The notes beneath the pieces were generated by a model. That model was not told the origin of the DNA. It searched no databases and saw nothing but the letters and a program-made list of their open reading frames with translations. From positions 3,286,001-3,350,000 of the forward strand of contig NZ_CP062231.1 in assembly GCF_024707525.1 (NCBI RefSeq): a stretch of DNA of 64,000 nucleotides, written 5' to 3'. The position numbers and the translations under genes are program-made. Positions 34,364 to 53,141 of this stretch are shown piece after piece. The stretch comes from Rhizobium sp. TH2. Lineage in GTDB: Bacteria; Pseudomonadota; Alphaproteobacteria; Rhizobiales; Rhizobiaceae. The stretch's first letter is position 1, and each line of letters starts with the position of its first letter.

Positions 34364-34984
34364 ATGGAGTCCGATGTCGTGCGTACCCGCCGTCCGTGGA
34401 ACAAGGGCATTCTCGTAGGCCAGAAGCGACCGCTGCAGCCCAAGAACGTCTGGTCAATTAGAGTGCGCCTTGAGATGAGTGGCGCAACACGTGAGCTTGC
34501 CCTCTTCAACCTGGCCATCGACAGCAAGCTCCGTGCCTGTGATCTGGTCAGATTGCGCGTCGAAGACCTCTGGTCTGGGAGCTCGATCAGAGATCGCGCG
34601 ACCATCATTCAAAAGAAGACAAAGCGCCCTGTCCAGTTCGAGGTAACGGAGCAGACAAAAGTCGCGCTCGTGGCATGGCTTCCGTCGGTCAAAAGAACGG
34701 GAGGAAGCTATCTCTTCCCCGGCAGACGCCGACAATCTTCTCATTTATCGACACGGCAATATGCGCGCAGCGTGCATCGCTGGGTCCGCAGCATTGGCCT
34801 TGAAGCGAGTGCCTATGGTACTCACTCGATGCGTCGAACGAAGGCAGCCTTGATCTACAAGAAGACTGGGAATCTGCGCGCCGTCCAAATCCTACTTGGC
34901 CACACCAAACTTGAGAGCACCGTCCGATATCTCGGTATCGAAATCGACGACGCGCTGCGGATCGCAGAGCAGATCGAGCTCTAA
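34364..34984 (+). CDS. Short tyrosine recombinase/integrase
   Basis: 206 aa consisting almost only of the catalytic domain. The tyrosine-recombinase residues are visible: R57 (SKLRACDLV), a beta-hairpin Lys (QKKTKRP), H154 and R157 (HSMRRTKAA), H180 (LLGHTKLES) and nucleophile Y189 (TVRYLG). The N-terminal core-binding domain is minimal, as in the short integrases common on rhizobial plasmids. It may serve integron-like or element-borne recombination. A GGAGGA box lies 6 nt before the ATG. No att site was identified; the gene separates the amino sugar operon from the moc-like cluster. Confidence 0.85.
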   Translation: MESDVVRTRRPWNKGILVGQKRPLQPKNVWSIRVRLEMSGATRELALFNLAIDSKLRACDLVRLRVEDLWSGSSIRDRATIIQKKTKRPVQFEVTEQTKVALVAWLPSVKRTGGSYLFPGRRRQSSHLSTRQYARSVHRWVRSIGLEASAYGTHSMRRTKAALIYKKTGNLRAVQILLGHTKLESTVRYLGIEIDDALRIAEQIEL

Positions 34985-35101: not shown

Positions 35102-36328
35102 TCACGCCGCCAGCAACGACTTGAGTTTGATGTTCGAAGAACCCAATGCCGCCATGCTGGGTTTCGCTTGAGCAGCGATCAACATTTCGGCCAATCGTAT
35201 GTCTCGACCCACGGCGTTCCCTATGCCGATCCCACTCGCCGCAACAATTCTGCCCTCGTCTTCGAGATGGAATAAAATGAATGCCCCGTCGCCGAGATCA
35301 CGGCGGACGCTTTTGGTCGTTGTCGTGGCAAGCCCCGCGACCTGGAGCGTCAGGTCATATTGGTCGGACCATGACCATGGAACATCGACGAAAGGTTTGC
35401 GGCCACCAAGCATGTTTCCGGCGACGAGCGTACCCTGATCCTGGGCGCTTCTCCATGACTCAAGACGAATTCGACGGTCCCCAAAAATCGCCGCGGGAAA
35501 AGAACAGCAATCTCCTACCGCATAGATATCCGGGTCGGAGGTTCGCATGAAGCGGTCGACCGCGATGCCGTTGTCGACAAGCAATCCAGTTTGCGCTGCG
35601 AGCTCGTCGTTCGGGATCGCCCCGATGCCAACAACAGCGAACTCACCTGCGACAACGCTTCCATCCTGGAGTTCGACGTGAATTTCGTCGTCCTTCTCCC
35701 TGACTGCAGCCACTGCGCTCTCAAGCAGGATTTCCACCCCTTCCTCGCGATGTCGTGCTTCCATGACCGCTGCTATCTCCGCTGGCACCGCCCGAGCCAT
35801 GAGACGCGGGAGCCCCTCTATGACCGTCACCGCAAGCCCGCGCCACCGAGCCGTGGCGGCAAGCTCGAGACCGATGAAGCCGCCGCCTATCACGATCATG
35901 CGTGCGCCTGGCGTGAGGCGCTCTCGAATGGCAACCGCGTCGTCGTGTGTACGCAGCGTCAACAGTCGCTCGGATCGCCGGAGGCCAGGCAGCATTCTCG
36001 GCCGTGCGCCAGTGGCCAGCAGGAGTTTGTCATACCGTTTGCTTATGCCATTGTTCAGGATCACGCATCGCTGTGCACGATCAATGCTGTCGACACGAAC
36101 TCCGCCAATATGCGTGATGTCAGCTTGAGCGAGCGCTTCCAAAGGTGCGATCAGCCTCGGATCAGGCTCGTCGAGCAACGCCTGCTTTGAAAGCGGAGGC
36201 CGGTCATATGGGGCGTGAGTTTCGTCTCCGATGAGCGTGATCTCTCCAGCAAAACCGCGCTCCCTGAGGCTTAACGCAGCGCGCGCGCCGCCAAGCCCCG
36301 CTCCCACAATCACGATACGTTCAGGCAT
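35102..36328 (-). CDS. FAD-dependent ferredoxin reductase (MocF-like)
   Basis: 408 aa oxygenase-type ferredoxin reductase (rhodocoxin/HcaD family): FAD motif IVIVGAGLGGARAALSLRER, the YDRPPLSKQ stretch, NAD motif MIVIGGGFIGLELAATARW, second FAD motif DPDIYAVGDCCSF and a C-terminal reductase domain. It would pass electrons from NAD(P)H to the Rieske ferredoxin at 41932 for the hydroxylase at 37770. Rhizopine catabolism in Rhizobium uses such a set (mocDEF). It is 123 bp downstream of the lacI-type gene on the same strand. The ATG at 36328 starts MPERIVIVGAG. Confidence 0.88.
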   Translation of the reverse strand: MPERIVIVGAGLGGARAALSLRERGFAGEITLIGDETHAPYDRPPLSKQALLDEPDPRLIAPLEALAQADITHIGGVRVDSIDRAQRCVILNNGISKRYDKLLLATGARPRMLPGLRRSERLLTLRTHDDAVAIRERLTPGARMIVIGGGFIGLELAATARWRGLAVTVIEGLPRLMARAVPAEIAAVMEARHREEGVEILLESAVAAVREKDDEIHVELQDGSVVAGEFAVVGIGAIPNDELAAQTGLLVDNGIAVDRFMRTSDPDIYAVGDCCSFPAAIFGDRRIRLESWRSAQDQGTLVAGNMLGGRKPFVDVPWSWSDQYDLTLQVAGLATTTTKSVRRDLGDGAFILFHLEDEGRIVAASGIGIGNAVGRDIRLAEMLIAAQAKPSMAALGSSNIKLKSLLAA

Positions 36329-36451
36329 TCCAAATCCTCCCAAGGCGAACAGGGGAAGAATATCGACGCCGCGCCAAAAGCCAACTGAAATTGATATAAA
36401 GTCTCATTCGTGCCATTTTCTTCCAAGAATGAAACGAAACGCGTCATTCAA

Positions 36452-37480
36452 TTAGATGTTCTCGCATGTGAAAATCTCGAATGGAAGAACCGTCGTGTGG
36501 TTGGAGGATTCTATTTTTCCCGAGGCCGCGCGCATCATCCCGTCAAGGGTCACATCCGCCAACTTTGGGAGAGGATGGCCGATCGCAAAGGTCATCGTGC
36601 CATCAAGAAGCGCTTCCCGCGTTGAGTCCATGAGTTCGTAGCCGACGAGAACCACTTTCCCTGCCATCCCGGAAGCCCGCAGACCCGCTATCGCACCAGA
36701 TATTCCTCCCCCGGCGACGTAAAGGCCTTTGAGGTCGGGGTTCTCATGAATCAACTTCTCCGTCATTTCCTGCGCAACAGCCGTGGATTCGAACGTCATG
36801 AGAGGCTCAAGAAGCGTGAAGTCGGTCGCATGCTCGCGAAAATAGGACCGGAAACCGCTCTCATTCATTTCCTGGCATCGGTAGCGAGGATTGCCGATGA
36901 GGATGCCGAGCTTGCCCCTTTCCTTGCAGATGTGATCGAACGCCCAACCAGCCGTCCGGCCTATCTTCCATCCATCGCAACCGACATAGGGAACGCGCCC
37001 CGTGGTCGCCAGCTGGGAGATAAGCGCGAAAACGGGCTTGCCCATCTGCTCGATCGCCTCGACGGCCTGCATGATCGTCGGGTGCACTTGCGCGACCACG
37101 CCGATCGCGTCGCAGTGTTCGGCGAGTTCCAGCATTTTGGCGGCGATGTTCTGCGGCGAGAGCGTCTCGATGTAGGCCACTTCGACACTGACCACTGCGC
37201 CATCCACCCGTTCAGACGCTGCTTCGATCGCGTTGCCGAGATTTCTGTAGAAAGCGCGGGAGGGCTGGTGCAACACGAAACCGAACCTGAATCTGGGGCG
37301 CGCGGCCGCAATCCGCCCTTCGATGGCCCCCGTGCCGTAGAACCCGATGTTCCGCGCCGCATCCTTGACGCGCTGCATGGTACCTGGCTTTACGGTGCTT
37401 GAACCGGCGAGAACGCGGTTCACCGTTGCCACGGAAACACCGGCCTCGTTGGCGAGATCGCGAATTGTTGGTCGGGACAT
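36452..37480 (-). CDS. LacI-family transcriptional regulator
   Basis: 342 aa: N-terminal LacI HTH (TIRDLANEAGVSVATVNRVL, residues about 4-23, with the hinge helix following) and a periplasmic-binding-protein-like ligand domain (FRFGFVLHQPSRAFYRNLG ... GLYVAGGGISGAIAGLRASG). It is divergent from the hydroxylase and transporter genes and probably controls the moc-like cluster in response to the imported cyclitol. Classical moc loci use a GntR-type MocR, so the regulator type differs here. An inverted repeat just upstream may be its operator. Confidence 0.88.
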   Translation of the reverse strand: MSRPTIRDLANEAGVSVATVNRVLAGSSTVKPGTMQRVKDAARNIGFYGTGAIEGRIAAARPRFRFGFVLHQPSRAFYRNLGNAIEAASERVDGAVVSVEVAYIETLSPQNIAAKMLELAEHCDAIGVVAQVHPTIMQAVEAIEQMGKPVFALISQLATTGRVPYVGCDGWKIGRTAGWAFDHICKERGKLGILIGNPRYRCQEMNESGFRSYFREHATDFTLLEPLMTFESTAVAQEMTEKLIHENPDLKGLYVAGGGISGAIAGLRASGMAGKVVLVGYELMDSTREALLDGTMTFAIGHPLPKLADVTLDGMMRAASGKIESSNHTTVLPFEIFTCENI

Positions 37481-37497
37481 CGTGCCCTCAATATCAT

Positions 37498-37529
37498 TTT
37501 GTATCAAACAGCCAATCCGTAGATACAAA
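37498..37529. promoter_or_regulatory. Inverted repeat upstream of lacI-type gene
   Basis: TTTGTATC (37498-37505) and GATACAAA (37522-37529) form an inverted repeat with 8-bp perfect arms and a 16-bp centre, 18-49 bp upstream of the LacI-type start on the minus strand. The position suits autoregulation and control of the divergent hydroxylase gene. LacI operators are usually more compact palindromes, so the match is tentative. Confidence 0.45.
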
Positions 37530-37769
37530 TGAGACAAATGTTGCTTCACGTAGCATGATCACTTGATTTGTCGTCCGTCAAGGATTTAGTTCCATTCCAG
37601 ACAAGGGTCGGGTTTCGAGAGAGCCGATCGGTCGAAGGAGACGTTTCGCAACATGGAATGGAGTTCGGCGGCGGGCCATGGCCTCGCACGATCGGCGAAG
37701 CCATGCCCGAAACGGATCGGAATCCCGACCATCGAGTTTGCGGCTCCGATCTACGAGATGGAGGATTGA

Positions 37770-38786
37770 ATGGACGATCTTCAGTACGGCACCCGCAACA
37801 AGCGCGGCGATTGGGCACCCAACGGCAAGATCGAAATCGCGCCTTTCTGGCGCTGGCCGATGAGCGCCAGGGCGCTGGGCGCGTGGCTGTTGGAATATCT
37901 GTGGCCGTGGAATGCGTTCCACATGGCGACGACATTGGCCTATTGGTATTTCATCATTCCCGACGTCGAGACGATGAAGACCTTGTCATGGGGTTGGCCA
38001 GTCTACCTCTACGTCGTGAACGCCGCAGCCATCTTCGTGATGTATGGTGCCGTCGAGTTCTTCTATTACGTCAAGCGCAAGCAGAGCAACCGCTTCAAAT
38101 ACAATGCGAAGTTTCCCGGTGACCAGCCGTCTGACGTCTTCTGGTTCAAGAGCCAGAACATCGACAACTTCCTTCGCAGCTTCTTGATCACCATCCCGCT
38201 GTGGACGGTCGTCGAAGTGACGTTCCTGTGGTGCTTCGCCAACGGCTACGTGCCCTGGCTGACCTGGGCCGACCATCCGCTCTACCTCGCAGCTCTCGTC
38301 TTCTTCGCACCGATGTTCCATGAGGGCTACTTCTACATGATCCATCGGCTGATCCACGTGCCTGTTCTCTACAAGTGGATTCACTCGGTCCACCACAACT
38401 CGGTGAATCCTTCGCCCTGGTCGTCGCTGTCCATGCATCCCGTCGAGGGCTTTGCCTATCATTCGGTGGCGTTCATTCACTTGATCATTCCGTCGAACCC
38501 TGTGGTCGCACTTTTCCAACTTCACGTCGCCGGCTTCGGCGCGATCAACGGCCATATCGGCTTCGAGAAGCTTGAACTCACCGACGAGGCCGCGCTGAAC
38601 AGCCACGCCTACACCCACTACCTTCACCACAAGTATTTCGAGGTGAATTACGGCGACGGCATCATCCCGATGGATAAGGTTTTTGGCACCTGGAACGACG
38701 GCACCAAGGAAGGCGAGGCAATCATGAATGCTCGTTTCCAAAAGAAGAAAGAACGCATGAACGCCAAGAACGCGGCGAAGGCTTGA
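37770..38786 (+). CDS. Membrane di-iron hydroxylase (sterol desaturase/fatty acid hydroxylase family)
   Basis: 338 aa integral membrane protein with the clustered histidines of the family: HRLIH (192-196), HSVHH (205-209), HPVEGFAYH (223-231) and HYLHH (283-287), among several hydrophobic helices. Such enzymes insert oxygen into C-H bonds with electrons from ferredoxin. Together with the Rieske ferredoxin (41932) and ferredoxin reductase (35102) it would form a three-component oxygenase; in rhizopine catabolism the MocDEF set removes the O-methyl group. The ATG at 37770 has GGAGGA just upstream. It is the first gene of the plus-strand half of the cluster. Confidence 0.85.
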   Translation: MDDLQYGTRNKRGDWAPNGKIEIAPFWRWPMSARALGAWLLEYLWPWNAFHMATTLAYWYFIIPDVETMKTLSWGWPVYLYVVNAAAIFVMYGAVEFFYYVKRKQSNRFKYNAKFPGDQPSDVFWFKSQNIDNFLRSFLITIPLWTVVEVTFLWCFANGYVPWLTWADHPLYLAALVFFAPMFHEGYFYMIHRLIHVPVLYKWIHSVHHNSVNPSPWSSLSMHPVEGFAYHSVAFIHLIIPSNPVVALFQLHVAGFGAINGHIGFEKLELTDEAALNSHAYTHYLHHKYFEVNYGDGIIPMDKVFGTWNDGTKEGEAIMNARFQKKKERMNAKNAAKA

Positions 38787-38939: not shown

Positions 38940-39917
38940 ATGAAATCAATCAAGAAAATCGCAGCCGTCCTGGTCGCATCGGTCGCGCTGACCGTTGGTA
39001 TTGCCGGCGGCGCATCGGCCGCGAAGATCGCCATCATCGGCGGCATGAATTCCGACCAGTTCTGGAACAAGATCAAGAAGGGCGTGGACGACGCCCGGGT
39101 CGTGGTCGAGGCCAATGGCGGGACCGTCGACTACCTGCGCATGCAGTCCTATGACAACTTCGCCGCCGACTCGGCGGACATCATCCGCACGGCGATCAGC
39201 CAGCGGCCCGACGGCATTGCGGTACCCGATTGGGTGTTCGAATCCCAGGACCCCGCAATCAAGGAAGCCATTGCCGCAGGCATCAAGGTTATCCTGTTCA
39301 ATGCAGGTACGCTTGACAAGGCTAAGGAACTCGGGGCGATCAACTATATCGGCTCTGATGAATATGTCGCCGGCGTCGCGAGCGGTGAACAGCTTCTGAA
39401 GCTTGGCTCCAAAAAGGGCGTCTGTATCAACACACTGCCCGGCACGGCGAATATCGAGGCCCGTTGCAAGGGCATGATCGACGCCATGACCAAGGGCGGA
39501 GCCACGGCCGAACAGTTGCCGCTGCCGACCACGGCGTTTGGGGACCCGGCGGCGATCTCCGAGGCGATCAAGGCCTATCTCCTCGAAAAGGCTGATGTCG
39601 ATGGCGCCCTGACCATCGGCGCCGGCGAAGCCGACGCTGCCGCTGTGGGTATCGAACAGGCCGCCAAGACAGGCACCGTCAAGCTCGGCTCCTTCGACTT
39701 CAACGAAGCCACGCTCGCCCGCATCAAGGACGGCAAGCAGGCGTTTGCCATCGACCAGCAGCCCTACCTCCAGTCACTTCTGGCCGTGACGTTGCTTGCG
39801 TCTCATATTGACTTCGGCACGATGCTGCCGACGGCCCCAATTCTGACCGGCCCTGGAATTGTCGACAGCGCCAACGTCGATGCGACCATCGCCGGCGTGA
39901 AGATCGGCGCTCGCTGA
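38940..39917 (+). CDS. Periplasmic sugar/cyclitol-binding protein (MocB/RbsB type)
   Basis: 325 aa. A signal peptide (MKSIKKIAAVLVASVALTVG, cleaved near GASA) precedes a type I periplasmic fold: KIAIIGGMNSDQFWNKIKKG, SADIIRTAISQRPDGIAVPD and NYIGSDEYVAGVASGEQLL. It is of the ribose/rhizopine-binding (MocB) type and distantly similar to the broken binding-protein gene at 4289. It delivers the ligand to the permease at 40007. The AGGAGGG box is strong, and hairpins before and after the gene suggest independent dosage of this abundant component. Confidence 0.9.
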   Translation: MKSIKKIAAVLVASVALTVGIAGGASAAKIAIIGGMNSDQFWNKIKKGVDDARVVVEANGGTVDYLRMQSYDNFAADSADIIRTAISQRPDGIAVPDWVFESQDPAIKEAIAAGIKVILFNAGTLDKAKELGAINYIGSDEYVAGVASGEQLLKLGSKKGVCINTLPGTANIEARCKGMIDAMTKGGATAEQLPLPTTAFGDPAAISEAIKAYLLEKADVDGALTIGAGEADAAAVGIEQAAKTGTVKLGSFDFNEATLARIKDGKQAFAIDQQPYLQSLLAVTLLASHIDFGTMLPTAPILTGPGIVDSANVDATIAGVKIGAR

Positions 39918-40006: not shown

Positions 40007-41008
40007 ATGGTCACAAATCTTTTCGGAAATCTGCTTCGGCGACCGGAGGCCGGCGCACTGATCGGCCTGATCGGCGTGCTCGTGTTCTTCGTCATCGTTG
40101 GGGGAATCGAGTTCCTCTATCCGGCAAGCATTGGCAGCTGGGTAAGCCGGGCGGCATCACTGGGTATCATCGCCATTCCCGTAGGTCTGTTGATGATCGC
40201 AGGCGAACTCGATATTTCGATCGGCGCGACCATTACCTCGGGCGCTCTGATCACCGCGCTCGTCTCTGGCTATTTCGGCCAGCCGATTGTCGTTGGCATG
40301 GTGGCGGCGCTGGCGTTCGGCGCGCTGGTGGGGCTGCTCAACGGCTATCTCGTGCTAAGAACTGGCGTGCCATCCTTCATCGTGACACTCGGCACCTTAT
40401 TCGCGGTATCTGGCCTGTTGCTCGGGGCGACAGTAGTTATCACCGGCACAACCTCCATCGCGTTGCAGGCACCGCAATTCGCCAAGACGATGTTTGGAGG
40501 CTTTTTCGGACCGGGCTTCCAGGTCTTGGTCCTCTGGTGGATCGGCATCACCGCTGCCTTCGTTTTCTTCGTGCACCTGTCGCGCTATGGGAACTGGATT
40601 TTCGCCATCGGCGGCGACAGTGTGAGCGCGCGCAACGCGGGCATACCCACCGGACGGATCACGATCCTCCTCTTCGTCCTGTCCTCCGTCTGTGCGTCCT
40701 TCGTCGGCATGTCGCAGGCCATCCTTTTCCAGTCGGTGCAAGCGACGCCTCAGTTGACGCTGATCTTCAACACGATCATCGCGGTCGTCGTCGGCGGCGT
40801 ACTGCTGACAGGGGGATTTGGCTCGGTCATCGGGATTTTTCTCGGAACGATCACTTTCGCTGTGGTGACGCAAGGCATCTATTACACGGACTTCGACCAG
40901 ACCTGGTCCAACATGGTGATCGGCATATTGCTGCTCGGCGCAGTCCTGATGAACAACACGTTCCGCCAACTGGCGCTGAGCGCCGCGACCCGCAAGAAGG
41001 GAGCCTGA
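40007..41008 (+). CDS. Sugar ABC transporter permease (RbsC/FrcC type)
   Basis: 333 aa with 8-10 hydrophobic helices and the family landmark IPVGLLMIAGELDISIGAT, then GLLNGYLVLRTGVPSFIVTL and FGSVIGIFLGTITFAVVTQG. A homodimer of this CUT2 permease forms the import channel for the binding protein encoded upstream. The stop is 3 bp before the ATPase start. Confidence 0.92.
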   Translation: MVTNLFGNLLRRPEAGALIGLIGVLVFFVIVGGIEFLYPASIGSWVSRAASLGIIAIPVGLLMIAGELDISIGATITSGALITALVSGYFGQPIVVGMVAALAFGALVGLLNGYLVLRTGVPSFIVTLGTLFAVSGLLLGATVVITGTTSIALQAPQFAKTMFGGFFGPGFQVLVLWWIGITAAFVFFVHLSRYGNWIFAIGGDSVSARNAGIPTGRITILLFVLSSVCASFVGMSQAILFQSVQATPQLTLIFNTIIAVVVGGVLLTGGFGSVIGIFLGTITFAVVTQGIYYTDFDQTWSNMVIGILLLGAVLMNNTFRQLALSAATRKKGA

Positions 41009-41011
41009 TCC

Positions 41012-41833
41012 ATGAACGCTCCAGTTTTGAAACTTGTGAATGTCAGCAAATCCTTCGGTCCGATCGACGTCCTCGAAGGCATCAATCTCGAAGTCCGCGC
41101 CGGCGAAGTGCTCTGTCTGCTCGGCGACAACGGTGCGGGCAAGTCGACGCTCATCAAGACGATGTCCGGCGTGCATAAGCCGACATCGGGCGAGATATGG
41201 ATGGACGGCGACAAGGTCGAGTTCAGCTCGCCGAGGGACGCATCCGAAAAAGGTATCGCGACCGTGCACCAGTTCGGTGGCACATTCCCGCTTATGTCGA
41301 TCGGCCGCTCGTTCTTTGTCGGCGTCGAACCGACCAAGGGCTGGGGGCCATTCAAAATCTATGACCGCAAGACGGCGAACGCTGTCGCGGTCAAGGCGGT
41401 TCGTGACTTCGGCATCACCCGGATCGACGATGGCGACCGACTGGTCGGCGGTCTGTCCGGCGGCGAGCGCCAGTCGCTGGCAATCGCTCGTGCTGTCCAT
41501 TTCGGTGCGCGCCTGCTGATCCTCGACGAGCCAACGGCAGCGCTGGGCGTCAAGCAGGCGACGCACGTCCTGCGCATCGTCAACGAAGCAAAGCGGCGTG
41601 GACTCGCAGTCGTCTTCATTACCCATCAAGTGATGCATGCCATGGCAGTTGGCGATCACTTCGCTGTTCTTATTCGTGGTGCTGTTGCCGCTGATTTCCG
41701 GAAGGGCGAGCGCTCGCGAGAAGAGATCACTGATCTGATGGCAGGCGGAGAGACGATGGCGTCTCTGGAAGCTGAGATCGAAAGCCAGATGAACTCGCAC
41801 GGCGGCGCGCACCACGTCGCTGCTGCAGAATGA
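41012..41833 (+). CDS. Sugar ABC transporter ATP-binding protein (single-domain CUT2)
   Basis: 273 aa: Walker A GDNGAGKST, Q-loop region ATVHQFGGTFPLMSIGRSFF, signature LSGGERQSLAIARAV, Walker B LLILDEPTAALG, switch His (FITHQ). Unlike RbsA it has only one nucleotide-binding domain. It is the intact counterpart of the partial ATPase at 1-599. Start ATG 41012, 3 bp after the permease stop. Confidence 0.92.
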   Translation: MNAPVLKLVNVSKSFGPIDVLEGINLEVRAGEVLCLLGDNGAGKSTLIKTMSGVHKPTSGEIWMDGDKVEFSSPRDASEKGIATVHQFGGTFPLMSIGRSFFVGVEPTKGWGPFKIYDRKTANAVAVKAVRDFGITRIDDGDRLVGGLSGGERQSLAIARAVHFGARLLILDEPTAALGVKQATHVLRIVNEAKRRGLAVVFITHQVMHAMAVGDHFAVLIRGAVAADFRKGERSREEITDLMAGGETMASLEAEIESQMNSHGGAHHVAAAE

Positions 41834-43037: not shown

Positions 43038-43862
43038 ATGGGCAACACCAAGAAACGGCCAACCGTCGCCGACATCCGCGCCATGAAGGCACGCGGCCAG
43101 AAAATTTCCATGCTCTACGTCACGACGCTGGAAGAGGCCGCCGCCGCGGATGCGGCAGGCATTGACATGCTCTCCATCGAGGGCCGTTTCTTCTCGTCCG
43201 CGATGCGCGAAGCGGCCGGGCGTTGCTTCGTTCAGGTGGGACTGCCCTATGGTGGACAAGGCACATTTCAGGGACGCCATCTCACGACGTCAAAGGACTA
43301 TCTTCGGGCAGCCTATCATTTCACTGTCATGGGCGGCGATTGCTTCTATTGCGCCGCTTCCTATGACATCCAGAAAGTACTCTGCGACAACCACGTCCCC
43401 ATCGTTGCCCATGTCGGGCTCATTCCGTCCTATATCACCTGGACTGGTTTCCGTGCTGTCGGGAAGACCGCCACTGAGGCGCTGGCAGTTTGGACACAGG
43501 TGAAGCAACTCGAGGCGATCGGCTGCTTCGGTGCGGAACTCGAGGTGGTGCCGGACCGTGTCGGAGAAGTGATCTCGAGATCGACGCCGATGATCATGCT
43601 GGGCATGGGGGCTGGACCCGGCGCTGACGCACAGTATCTGTTTGCCGAGGACGTGCTCGGCCATACCAGCGGTCACAAGCCGCGCCACGCCAAGACATAC
43701 CGCAACTTTGCCGCCGAGTTCGAGCGGCTGCAGCAGGAACGGATTTCCGCGTTCAGGGAGTTCATCGGCGACATCCAGACGGGCGCTTACCCAGCGCCGC
43801 AGCATGTCGTGCCGATTTCTGACGCGGAATACGACCACTTCGCGGCGTCCATTACCAATTGA
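43038..43862 (+). CDS. PanB-like protein with altered metal site
   Basis: 274 aa of the ketopantoate hydroxymethyltransferase (PanB) TIM-barrel family: TVADIRAMKARGQKISML at the N-terminus, VAHVGLIPSYITWTGFRAVG, GCFGAELEVVPDRV (E169 matches the catalytic Glu) and the C-terminal HKPRHAKTYRNFAAEF. The three metal-ligand sites of true PanB are replaced: VGDS by IEGR (about 47-50), ADMPF by VGLPY (67-71) and KLEGG by YCAAS (104-108). It therefore probably does not make ketopantoate. Within the moc-like cluster it may act on a keto intermediate or a one-carbon unit; this is inference. Confidence 0.8.
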   Translation: MGNTKKRPTVADIRAMKARGQKISMLYVTTLEEAAAADAAGIDMLSIEGRFFSSAMREAAGRCFVQVGLPYGGQGTFQGRHLTTSKDYLRAAYHFTVMGGDCFYCAASYDIQKVLCDNHVPIVAHVGLIPSYITWTGFRAVGKTATEALAVWTQVKQLEAIGCFGAELEVVPDRVGEVISRSTPMIMLGMGAGPGADAQYLFAEDVLGHTSGHKPRHAKTYRNFAAEFERLQQERISAFREFIGDIQTGAYPAPQHVVPISDAEYDHFAASITN

Positions 43863-43912: not shown

Positions 43913-44911
43913 ATGCTGAAAATCGGACTTCTTGGCGCTGGGCGTATTGGAAACGTCCACGCCAAGGCAATCACATCCCACGCCGCCAGCAAGCTCGTCG
44001 CTGTGTCCGACGTCAACCAGGAGGCCGCAGGCAAGCTGGCGACACAATACGGAGCGCAGGCCAGCACCAGCGAGGCGATCATCGCCAACAGCGACATCGA
44101 CGCGGTCTTGATCGCGACCTCGACAGATACGCATTCGGACCTCATCGAAGCGGCCACCCGAGCTGGAAAGGCCGTCCTGTGCGAGAAGCCCGTGGACCTC
44201 AGCCTAGAACGGGCGCTTGCGTGTCGGAAGATCGCCGCCGCGACAGGCCGTCCCGTCATGATCGGCTTCAACCGGCGTTTCGACCCGAACTTCGCTGCCC
44301 TGAAGGCTGCCGTCGACCGCGGCGAGATCGGCAGGGCGGAACTTCTCTCCGTGACGTCTTTCGACCCGGGTCCACCGCCTGTGTCCTACATCAAGGTCTC
44401 GGGAGGTCTGTTTCGCGACATGATGATCCACGACTTCGACATGGCGTCCTGGATCATGGGCGGGTTGCCCCAGACGGTCAGGGCGGTCGCGAGTTCGATC
44501 GTCGATCCCGAGATCGGCGCAGCCGGCGACGTCGATACGGCCGTCGTCACACTTGAATATGCGGACGGTCGGATCGCCGTCATCAAAAACAGCCGTCGCG
44601 CGGTCTATGGATACGACCAGCGCGTTGAACTCCTCGGCTCGGAAGGTTTGCTTTCGGCTGGCAATATGATTGAGAACACCGTCGTCAAGTCGACGAAGGA
44701 CGGTGTCGTCTCCGCCAAGCCCGAGTTCTTCTTCCTCGAACGCTACATGCGCGCCTACGCCGCGGAATGGGCGGCATTCGTCGGAGCTGTCACTGGCAGC
44801 GGCGTAGTCCCGGTCTCCCTTGATGACGGCGTGAACGCGCTCGCCCTTGCAGAAGCCGCAACCCGTTCGGCAAAGTCCGGGATGGCGGTTGAAGTCGCGA
44901 CTGTCATGTAG
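43913..44911 (+). CDS. Gfo/Idh/MocA oxidoreductase (inositol 2-dehydrogenase-like)
   Basis: 332 aa: N-terminal KIGLLGAGRIGNVHAKAI, LCEKPVDLSLE near residue 95, GFNRRFDPNFAALK, MIHDFDMASWIMGG with the catalytic-region His/Asp. Close in type to IolG/MocA, which oxidise myo-inositol or scyllo-inosamine derivatives with NAD. The ATG at 43913 is preceded by CAGGGAGAACAGA; an upstream in-frame ATG at 43859 lacks a family-like N-terminus. Last gene of the moc-like cluster. Confidence 0.9.
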   Translation: MLKIGLLGAGRIGNVHAKAITSHAASKLVAVSDVNQEAAGKLATQYGAQASTSEAIIANSDIDAVLIATSTDTHSDLIEAATRAGKAVLCEKPVDLSLERALACRKIAAATGRPVMIGFNRRFDPNFAALKAAVDRGEIGRAELLSVTSFDPGPPPVSYIKVSGGLFRDMMIHDFDMASWIMGGLPQTVRAVASSIVDPEIGAAGDVDTAVVTLEYADGRIAVIKNSRRAVYGYDQRVELLGSEGLLSAGNMIENTVVKSTKDGVVSAKPEFFFLERYMRAYAAEWAAFVGAVTGSGVVPVSLDDGVNALALAEAATRSAKSGMAVEVATVM

Positions 44912-52349: not shown

Positions 52350-53141
52350 ATGACGGCAGACATCTCGCAAGTCGGAGGCCCAAGGCGCGTCTGCGTCGTC
52401 ACGGCCGGAGGACAAGCGCCTGCGATCATGATCAATGCCTTGGGAGCGGCATTCGGTCCGATCGATGTGGTCATGGAACGTCCGGAACCAATGTGGTCTT
52501 TTCTCAAGCGCCGGGCCAGAAAGGTCGGCTGGACGAACCTGGCGGGACAATTCCTGACGATAAAGCTCATTGTCCAGATGAAGCGGCTCTCACGACGATC
52601 GACCCGACAGATCATTCGCGACGAAGGCCTTCATGTGGAGATCGGCGCGCAGCACCGAATATGTAAGATCGAATCCGTCAACTCCATGGATTTCATCGAA
52701 GCGGTCGATGACTTGAGGCCGGAGGTTGTTTTCCTTTGTGGATGCAGAATCGTCAAGCCGGACATTTTGGCGCGTGTCCGGGTTCCCATGCTCAACTATC
52801 ATGCGGGGATAACGCCGCAATACCGTGGCATGAACGGCGGCTATTGGGCGCTTGCCAACGGAGACGACACCAATTTTGGGGCGACCGTCCACCATGTCGA
52901 TACTGGCGTGGACACAGGAGCGGTTATCGCACAGGTTCGCAGCAGCCCCGGCAAAGGCGACACGATCTGGACCTATCCTCTCCGCCAGGCGGCGATGTCG
53001 CGGGCGATGTGCGTCGACAGCGTCCGGGCTGCACTCGAAGGCGGCGTCAAGCCCATCGAGACTTCAGGGCCGTCCGTTCAGCATTATCATCCGGAAATCT
53101 GGAATTACCTTCGGGTTGGAATCGCCAAGGGGGTCTGGTAG
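52350..53141 (+). CDS. Formyltransferase-fold protein
   Basis: 263 aa. The C-terminal half carries the formyl-transferase signature: N149-Y-H151 in MLNYHAGITPQYRG, and D188 in HHVDTGVDTGAVI, matching the Asn-His-Asp catalytic triad. The N-terminal half (RRVCVVTAGGQAPAIMINAL) is a short Rossmann-like part. It is smaller than methionyl-tRNA formyltransferase (about 310 aa) and lacks its C-terminal domain, so a sugar-nucleotide N-formyltransferase or formyl hydrolase is more likely. AGGGAGG lies 9 nt upstream. It stands alone between copper genes; its role there is unknown. The 120 bp before it hold nothing recognisable. Confidence 0.75.
   Translation: MTADISQVGGPRRVCVVTAGGQAPAIMINALGAAFGPIDVVMERPEPMWSFLKRRARKVGWTNLAGQFLTIKLIVQMKRLSRRSTRQIIRDEGLHVEIGAQHRICKIESVNSMDFIEAVDDLRPEVVFLCGCRIVKPDILARVRVPMLNYHAGITPQYRGMNGGYWALANGDDTNFGATVHHVDTGVDTGAVIAQVRSSPGKGDTIWTYPLRQAAMSRAMCVDSVRAALEGGVKPIETSGPSVQHYHPEIWNYLRVGIAKGVW

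What the first reader, a model, noticed from the sequence alone, without database searches (positions are those of the whole stretch)
43038..43862. PanB-family protein without PanB metal ligands inside an oxygenase-linked cyclitol cluster
The protein is clearly PanB-like over its whole length and keeps the catalytic Glu (LEVVP), but the three metal-ligand motifs are replaced (VGDS to IEGR, ADMPF to VGLPY, KLEGG to YCAAS). Known: PanB transfers a one-carbon unit from methylene-THF to a 2-oxo acid, using Mg held by those residues. Inference: it has been recruited to another C-C bond reaction. It may be a retro-aldol on a keto-cyclitol fragment, or capture of the formaldehyde released when an O-methyl group is oxidised.
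Basis: partly seen in the sequence, partly recalled or inferred. Interest (0 to 1): 0.8.

Follow-up and report, generated by a model that had tools for sequence, protein, structure and literature searches.

The report
Metal-less PanB relative paired with demethylases
A gene labelled as a vitamin B5 enzyme has lost the metal-binding residues that enzyme needs, belongs to a separate family that usually sits beside oxygen-using enzymes thought to strip methyl groups from sugars, and most likely passes the released one-carbon unit to folate.

Summary
The 274-aa protein has the PanB fold and catalytic Glu but none of PanB's metal ligands, and about 20 residues after GDS are deleted. It belongs to an alphaproteobacterial clade (SH-aLRT 100); in 144 aligned rows none keeps the second or third ligand. 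Its own genome has a normal PanB and three such paralogues.

The clade's commonest partner is not cyclitol genes but a non-haem-iron oxygenase of one of three Pfam families (PF04116, PF00487, PhyH). One lies within 9.5 kb in 41 of 50 loci from genome draws, against 1 of 22 canonical panB loci. A MocE ferredoxin often accompanies it. Some operons add purU and folD, the exit of folate C1 oxidation. In R. etli, what is almost certainly a clade member beside mocDEF-type genes did not replace panB (published).

Best reading: it is not a ketopantoate synthase. It takes the C1 unit (formaldehyde or its hemiacetal) from oxidative demethylation and loads it on tetrahydrofolate, the THF half of PanB's reaction run backwards without metal. 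The chemistry is inferred.

The parts
43038..43862 (+). PanB-family protein without PanB metal ligands (274 aa)
37770..38786 (+). membrane fatty-acid-hydroxylase/sterol-desaturase family diiron oxygenase (PF04116, 71.7 bits; His boxes HRLIH, HSVHH, HAYTH): proposed O-demethylase
   Evidence: one of two PF04116 genes in the genome
41932..42243 (+). MocE-type Rieske [2Fe-2S] ferredoxin (103 aa)
35102..36343 (-). FAD ferredoxin reductase, MocF-like
43913..44911 (+). Gfo/Idh protein above the NCBIfam inositol 2-dehydrogenase cut-off (TIGR04380, 419.9 vs 355)
38940..39917 (+). periplasmic sugar-binding protein; best NCBIfam hit rhizopine SBP but below cut-off (173.1 vs 420)
40007..41008 (+). ABC permease
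41012..41833 (+). ABC ATPase
36452..37549 (-). LacI-family regulator, divergent to the oxygenase gene

Best explanation
The protein is not a ketopantoate synthase. It is the C1-acceptor enzyme of an oxidative demethylation module. Step 1 (inferred): the diiron oxygenase, fed electrons by FAD reductase and MocE ferredoxin, hydroxylates an O-methyl group of an imported cyclitol or sugar, giving a hemiacetal (O-CH2OH) that falls apart to formaldehyde. Step 2 (inferred): the PanB-like enzyme transfers that CH2O unit to tetrahydrofolate, making 5,10-methylene-THF. This is the THF half of PanB's reaction run backwards. The metal and 2-oxo-acid site is gone because no enolate is needed; the catalytic Glu, active-site His and C-terminal half are kept. 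Step 3 (gene content shown, flux inferred): FolD and PurU, where present, carry the C1 unit to formate; elsewhere it enters the folate pool. The demethylated ring is oxidised by the IolG-like and TIM-barrel enzymes into inositol catabolism. Shown: ligand loss, one clade, fold, pairing with oxygenase, MocE and sometimes purU/folD. Not shown: any reaction, THF binding, or the natural substrate.
For: (1) In 50 clade loci taken from genome draws, a PF04116, PF00487 or PhyH gene lies within 9.5 kb in 41 (12 of 18; 29 of 32), against 1 of 22 canonical panB loci; 51 of 52 near-relative loci of at least 18 kb have a PF04116 or PF00487 gene. (2) Three oxygenase families, PhyH unlike the other two, share this one partner, so the shared product, a C1 unit, is the likeliest link. 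(3) purU/folD in operons: P. zundukense DES-MocE-MocF-PanBL-purU-folD; L156 Gfo/Idh-MocE-MocF-purU-FAH-PanBL. In 37 genomes 4 of 23 purU copies lie within 3 kb of a clade gene, about 0.04 expected by length. No GcvT or MetF hit in 80 near loci, leaving this protein as the obvious methylene-THF maker; serine hydroxymethyltransferase was not tested. (4) PanB residues kept: H125, E169, D197, D205; second and third metal ligands lost in all rows. (5) An R. etli relative beside mocDEF-type genes does not complement panB (PMC3082293 passages). [quoted passage not shown]
Against: No biochemical data. 21 of 37 clade-bearing genomes have no purU at E <= 1e-60, and the window's own cluster has none. Context misses: L088 and L091 (contig edges), L089 (MocE and purU but no oxygenase found), L095, L096, L100, L150, L154, L157, and L037 among the near loci of full length. 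THF-binding residues of PanB were not identified, so retention of a folate site is not tested. purU/folD might serve another C1 source. That the oxygenase O-demethylates is inferred (Bahar 1998 seen only as a reference title). Draw loci include related genera and are not independent.
Confidence: 0.55

Rival explanations
1. Formaldehyde aldolase without folate: it adds formaldehyde from demethylation to another carbon acid (2-oxo acid, ketose or keto-cyclitol), a metal-free variant of the PanB condensation.
For: PanB fold and catalytic Glu kept; oxygenase pairing. THF-independent hydroxymethylation by M. tuberculosis PanB is recalled, not seen in a call.
Against: The second and third metal ligands, which in PanB hold the enolate, are lost in all 144 clade rows; neighbouring catabolic genes differ between branches; purU/folD would be unexplained.
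Confidence: 0.15
2. Hemiacetal lyase or partner of the oxygenase: it speeds release of formaldehyde from O-CH2OH or shields it, with no folate chemistry.
For: In some loci the profiles find just an oxygenase next to the PanB-like gene, no MocE or MocF (L093, L108, L111, L171); PMC3617469 notes it is not known whether an additional enzyme assists hemiacetal breakdown (passages).
Against: purU/folD association; conserved acid/base residues suggest more than help with a spontaneous step.
Confidence: 0.14
3. Retro-aldol C-C cleavage of a ring-opened cyclitol fragment.
For: In the window branch it is next to MocC-like and IolG-like genes; C-C lyases of the PEP-mutase/ICL superfamily share the fold.
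Against: Several loci have an oxygenase but no MocC, Gfo/Idh or iol hit (L093, L098, L101, L110, L111, L112). Metal ligands, used for C-C cleavage in this superfamily (general knowledge), are lost. L113 and L089 have iolC/iolD, which already give the ordinary route.
Confidence: 0.06
4. Degenerate or still weakly active ketopantoate synthase (spare PanB).
For: Annotated as such in the annotated relatives and named homologues seen.
Against: Below PanB equivalog cut-offs (75.3 vs 207.55); ligands lost; a canonical panB next to panC is in the same genome; an R. etli relative does not complement panB (PMC3082293 passages); retention of H125, E167 and E169 in 143 of 144 rows (one gap) argues against decay.
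Confidence: 0.03

Closest known systems
PanB, ketopantoate hydroxymethyltransferase (EC 2.1.2.11; PF02548, TIGR00222)
   Different: Metal ligands and the segment after GDS lost; new invariant E167, H217; sits with oxygenases, not panC; an R. etli relative does not complement panB.
Rhizopine mocDEF oxygenase complex
   Same: MocE-type ferredoxin and reductase with an oxygenase; MocC-like and Gfo/Idh genes; the moc system handles an O-methyl cyclitol amine.
   Different: The window oxygenase is PF04116, not the PF00487 MocD type. A PanB-like gene directly after mocDEF-type genes (L109, L116, L143) is not named in two papers that treat moc genes: 'panB' occurs 0 times in the main text of PMC10107442 and PMC3538637.
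Formaldehyde-activating enzyme Fae (recalled)
   Same: Proposed role: catalysing formaldehyde addition to a reduced pterin cofactor.
   Different: Recalled as a different fold using tetrahydromethanopterin; no comparison was run.
Partial-ligand group B (L102-L107)
   Same: PanB-family paralogues with a Glu at the E167 column (6 of 6); PhyH within 9.5 kb in 5 of 6.
   Different: Keeps GDS but changes the second Asp to C/S and the Glu to Q; outside the metal-less clade.

Membership tests
PanB (ketopantoate hydroxymethyltransferase) | PF02548 domain above gathering score | tested here: met
   118.1 vs 28.7 bits
PanB (ketopantoate hydroxymethyltransferase) | curated PanB equivalog/subfamily cut-offs | tested here: not met
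   TIGR00222 75.3 vs 207.55; NF001452 108.2 vs 272
PanB (ketopantoate hydroxymethyltransferase) | metal ligands (GDS Asp, DMPF Asp, KLEGG Glu) | tested here: not met
   replaced by G49, G68, A106; in 144 clade rows second Asp 0, Glu 0, first-column Asp 4
PanB (ketopantoate hydroxymethyltransferase) | catalytic Glu and active-site His | tested here: met
   E169 and H125; 143 of 144 clade rows, one gap
PanB (ketopantoate hydroxymethyltransferase) | PanB fold | tested here: met
PanB (ketopantoate hydroxymethyltransferase) | makes ketopantoate / complements panB | not testable with these tools
   Published for an R. etli relative: no complementation, 'data not shown' there (PMC3082293 passages); identity of RHE_PE00443 with L143:8818-9633 inferred from plasmid, length and identity
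rhizopine moc system | MocD (PF00487) oxygenase with MocE and MocF | tested here: not met
   window oxygenase is PF04116; MocE- and MocF-like present
rhizopine moc system | rhizopine SBP above cut-off | tested here: not met
   NF052284 173.1 vs 420
THF-dependent formaldehyde-capture enzyme (proposed) | THF binding and methylene-THF formation | not testable with these tools
   only gene context supports it

The most novel reading that the evidence does not exclude
A metal-free branch of the PanB fold is a dedicated enzyme that loads formaldehyde, or the hemiacetal CH2OH itself, onto tetrahydrofolate. It serves as the general C1 sink for oxidative O-demethylation by several non-haem-iron oxygenase families in soil, aquatic and marine alphaproteobacteria. 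That would be a folate counterpart of Fae, and a class of enzymes now misnamed PanB in the databases.
Probability: 0.42. Interest if true: 0.85.

Novelty: new variant of a known kind. Interest (0 to 1): 0.68.

Why it matters
If true, it names an enzyme for a step usually treated as spontaneous, condensation of formaldehyde with tetrahydrofolate (general knowledge). It would explain how alphaproteobacteria that eat O-methylated plant and algal sugars avoid formaldehyde poisoning. It would also correct the annotation of many proteins now called ketopantoate hydroxymethyltransferase: all 120 relatives listed for P0001 (76-90% identity; 4525 found, only 120 listed) carry the PanB Pfam domain, and each name given by a source is 3-methyl-2-oxobutanoate or ketopantoate hydroxymethyltransferase. 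The clade tags putative demethylation operons, so it can be used to find new ones.

Tried and rejected
A cyclitol-only role was dropped: several loci have an oxygenase but no MocC-like, Gfo/Idh or iol hit. Pseudogene or spare PanB was dropped (PMC3082293). MAFFT on four sequences misplaced the motifs, so 70 rows were used and later all rows. Formaldehyde dehydrogenase in the operon: only weak hits to E. coli FrmA, 42-98 bits in 3 of 80 near loci and 68 bits in 1 of 32 further loci, likely general zinc alcohol dehydrogenases; canonical controls had 3 of 22 such hits; not supported. GcvT as methylene-THF source: 0 of 80, though L114 has one 7.3 kb away. GlyA was meant as a reference but the fetched stretch cut it off, so it was not tested. 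Relocated metal site: not tested, no coordinates available. In nine searches of PMC full text the only paper found that treats such a paralogue is PMC3082293; subscription papers and preprints are not covered. The 50 structures listed by VIA-align show no other fold above PanB.

Counts and rows dropped: one search kept the best 80 of 95 relatives. Near rows were thinned before the tree (70 rows) and the conservation table (31 clade rows); one search recounts the ligand columns on all 144. Gene fragments of the clade in G217 and G301 were not fetched, and places already held were not fetched again. purU in near loci is 13 of 80 by profile and 14 of 80 by tblastn (L009 extra). The Fisher tests treat related loci as independent, and the diiron one used 33 where the listing gives 34 of 50; they are not relied on.

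Full report

RECOUNT OF LIGANDS. On all rows held, 22 of 22 canonical rows have both Asp, the Lys and the Glu. Of 144 metal-less rows none has the second Asp or the Glu; 4 (L090, L108, L111, L113) have an Asp in the first ligand column. H125, E167 and E169 are present in 143 of 144, the other row being a gap. Group B (6 rows) keeps the first Asp and the Lys, with C or S for the second Asp and Q for the Glu.

FAMILY. The window genome has four PF02548 genes: a normal panB beside panC (L087) and three divergent paralogues, P0001, P0122 (52% identical) and P0123 (33%). In a 70-row tree the 42 metal-less rows fall on one side of a branch with SH-aLRT 100, the 22 canonical rows on one with 99 (quick search, some long branches, root not inferred). 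Among 299 Pseudomonadota genomes, 19 have a metal-less member at E <= 1e-35, all in the window's class.

SURROUNDINGS. In the window the gene lies 7 bp after a MocC-like TIM barrel and 50 bp before an IolG-like dehydrogenase that passes the inositol 2-dehydrogenase cut-off. Upstream in the same direction are a MocE ferredoxin, an ABC transporter and a PF04116 diiron oxygenase; a LacI regulator and an FAD reductase run the other way. Among the 80 relatives kept of 95 found, a PF04116 or PF00487 gene is within 9.5 kb in 68 of 80, and in 51 of 52 loci of at least 18 kb (exception L037); MocE in 72 of 80, purU 13 of 80, folD 6 of 80, GcvT 0 of 80. MocC-like genes are in 66 of 80 and Gfo/Idh in 62 of 80.

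SAMPLE FROM GENOME DRAWS. Loci from draws over the class, family and phylum were checked with the same profiles. A PF04116, PF00487 or PhyH gene lies within 9.5 kb in 12 of 18 (window; others) and 29 of 32. Misses: L088 and L091 (contig edges), L089 (MocE and purU only), L095, L096, L100, L150 (beside an IolB-family gene and a TIM barrel), L154, L157 (a ring-hydroxylating Rieske oxygenase about 3 kb away on the other strand). MocE is in 26 of 32. In 22 canonical panB loci there are 0 PF04116, PF00487, MocE, purU or folD genes and 1 PhyH. Family identities of the profile seeds were checked by Pfam on examples. In the window genome there are two PF04116 and five PF00487 genes; one of each lies beside a metal-less paralogue, and the third paralogue has PhyH.

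THE FOLATE LINK. Annotated relatives show the operon logic: Phyllobacterium zundukense has MocD, MocE, FAD reductase, PanB-like, purU and a folD profile hit next; Rhizobium sp. SL42 has MocD-MocE-reductase-PanB-like-iolG with purU at the other end of the cluster; L156 has Gfo/Idh, MocE, reductase, purU, PF04116 oxygenase, PanB-like, the reductase/purU and oxygenase/PanB-like ORFs overlapping by 4 bp with first-start coordinates. In G359 purU starts about 54 bp after the PanB-like match on the same strand. FolD was checked by Pfam in L006. In 37 clade-bearing genomes there are 23 purU copies; 4 (G100, G233, G244, G359) lie within 3 kb of a clade gene, where about 0.04 are expected by length. 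Against it: 21 of the 37 have no purU at that limit, and the window genome's single strong purU is elsewhere.

MECHANISM. Oxygenases of three Pfam families, two of them membrane diiron enzymes and one an Fe(II)/2-oxoglutarate type, share one partner. What they can share is the product of demethylation, a C1 unit at the formaldehyde level. Alkylglycerol monooxygenase, which has the fatty acid hydroxylase motif, hydroxylates the carbon next to an ether oxygen, giving a hemiacetal that breaks to an aldehyde (PMC3617469, passages). PanB joins methylene-THF to a 2-oxo acid as a metal-requiring aldolase; [quoted passage not shown] A PanB that lost the metal and 2-oxo-acid site but kept the rest is well placed to run only the THF half-reaction, from formaldehyde or hemiacetal to methylene-THF. 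FolD and PurU would take it to formate. This is inference from context; THF binding is untested.

LITERATURE. Rhizobium etli plasmid p42e carries a second PanB-like gene, RHE_PE00443. The panB mutant is a pantothenate auxotroph, and RHE_PE00443 expressed from a plasmid does not complement it (PMC3082293, passages). The p42e stretch read shows one such gene in a desaturase-MocE-reductase cluster; it is 271 aa (the paper gives 270), 65% identical to P0122, and lacks the ligand motifs. That it is RHE_PE00443 is inferred. Bahar 1998, a model of rhizopine catabolism with a ferredoxin oxygenase complex, was seen only as a title in a reference list. LacI homologues divergent to mocD operons are described in PMC3538637 (passages). 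'panB' has 0 occurrences in the main text of PMC10107442 and of PMC3538637.

VERDICT. Real, misannotated, and part of a distinct enzyme clade tied to non-haem-iron oxygenases and probably to oxidative demethylation. The specific chemistry is a testable proposal with confidence 0.55.

Noticed in passing
L094, L098, L101 (genome G135, 1.6 Mb): A small 1.6 Mb alphaproteobacterial genome carries four metal-less PanB paralogues, two in tandem beside PhyH genes, others beside desaturases and a family 4 glycosidase: heavy investment for a small genome.
   Followed up: partly
L102-L107: A second PanB-like group keeps GDS but changes the other ligands (D to C/S, E to Q); PhyH lies near in 5 of 6, with a TRAP transporter in L103. 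A 254-aa protein next to L103's PanB-like gene has no Pfam hit, while a relative in L097 just passes the FA_hydroxylase cut-off (32.2 vs 31).
   Followed up: partly
L086 (window genome C1 about 140 kb): Third paralogue sits with PhyH, a ribose-type ABC transporter, PfkB kinase and a GDSL-family gene; substrate unknown.
   Followed up: partly
L085:10040-11920: An amidase with an allophanate-hydrolase C-terminal domain directly follows the second paralogue.
   Followed up: partly
window 34364-34984: A 206-aa phage-integrase-family ORF lies between the amino-sugar cluster and this cluster, hinting that the cluster was inserted; the purU seen at this side in L067 and L075 is absent here.
   Followed up: partly
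window 52350-53141: Formyltransferase-domain protein (PF00551 62.6 bits; PurU model only 20.5 bits) about 8.5 kb from the PanB-like gene, beyond what looks like an RND efflux operon; probably unrelated.
   Followed up: partly
L108:7418-8041: Annotated 'inositol oxygenase family protein' beside the oxygenase + PanB-like pair, but no Pfam hit at 1e-5.
   Followed up: partly
L072: A MAG labelled Trueperaceae (Deinococcota by name) carries a 74% identical copy; transfer or misbinned contig.
   Followed up: no
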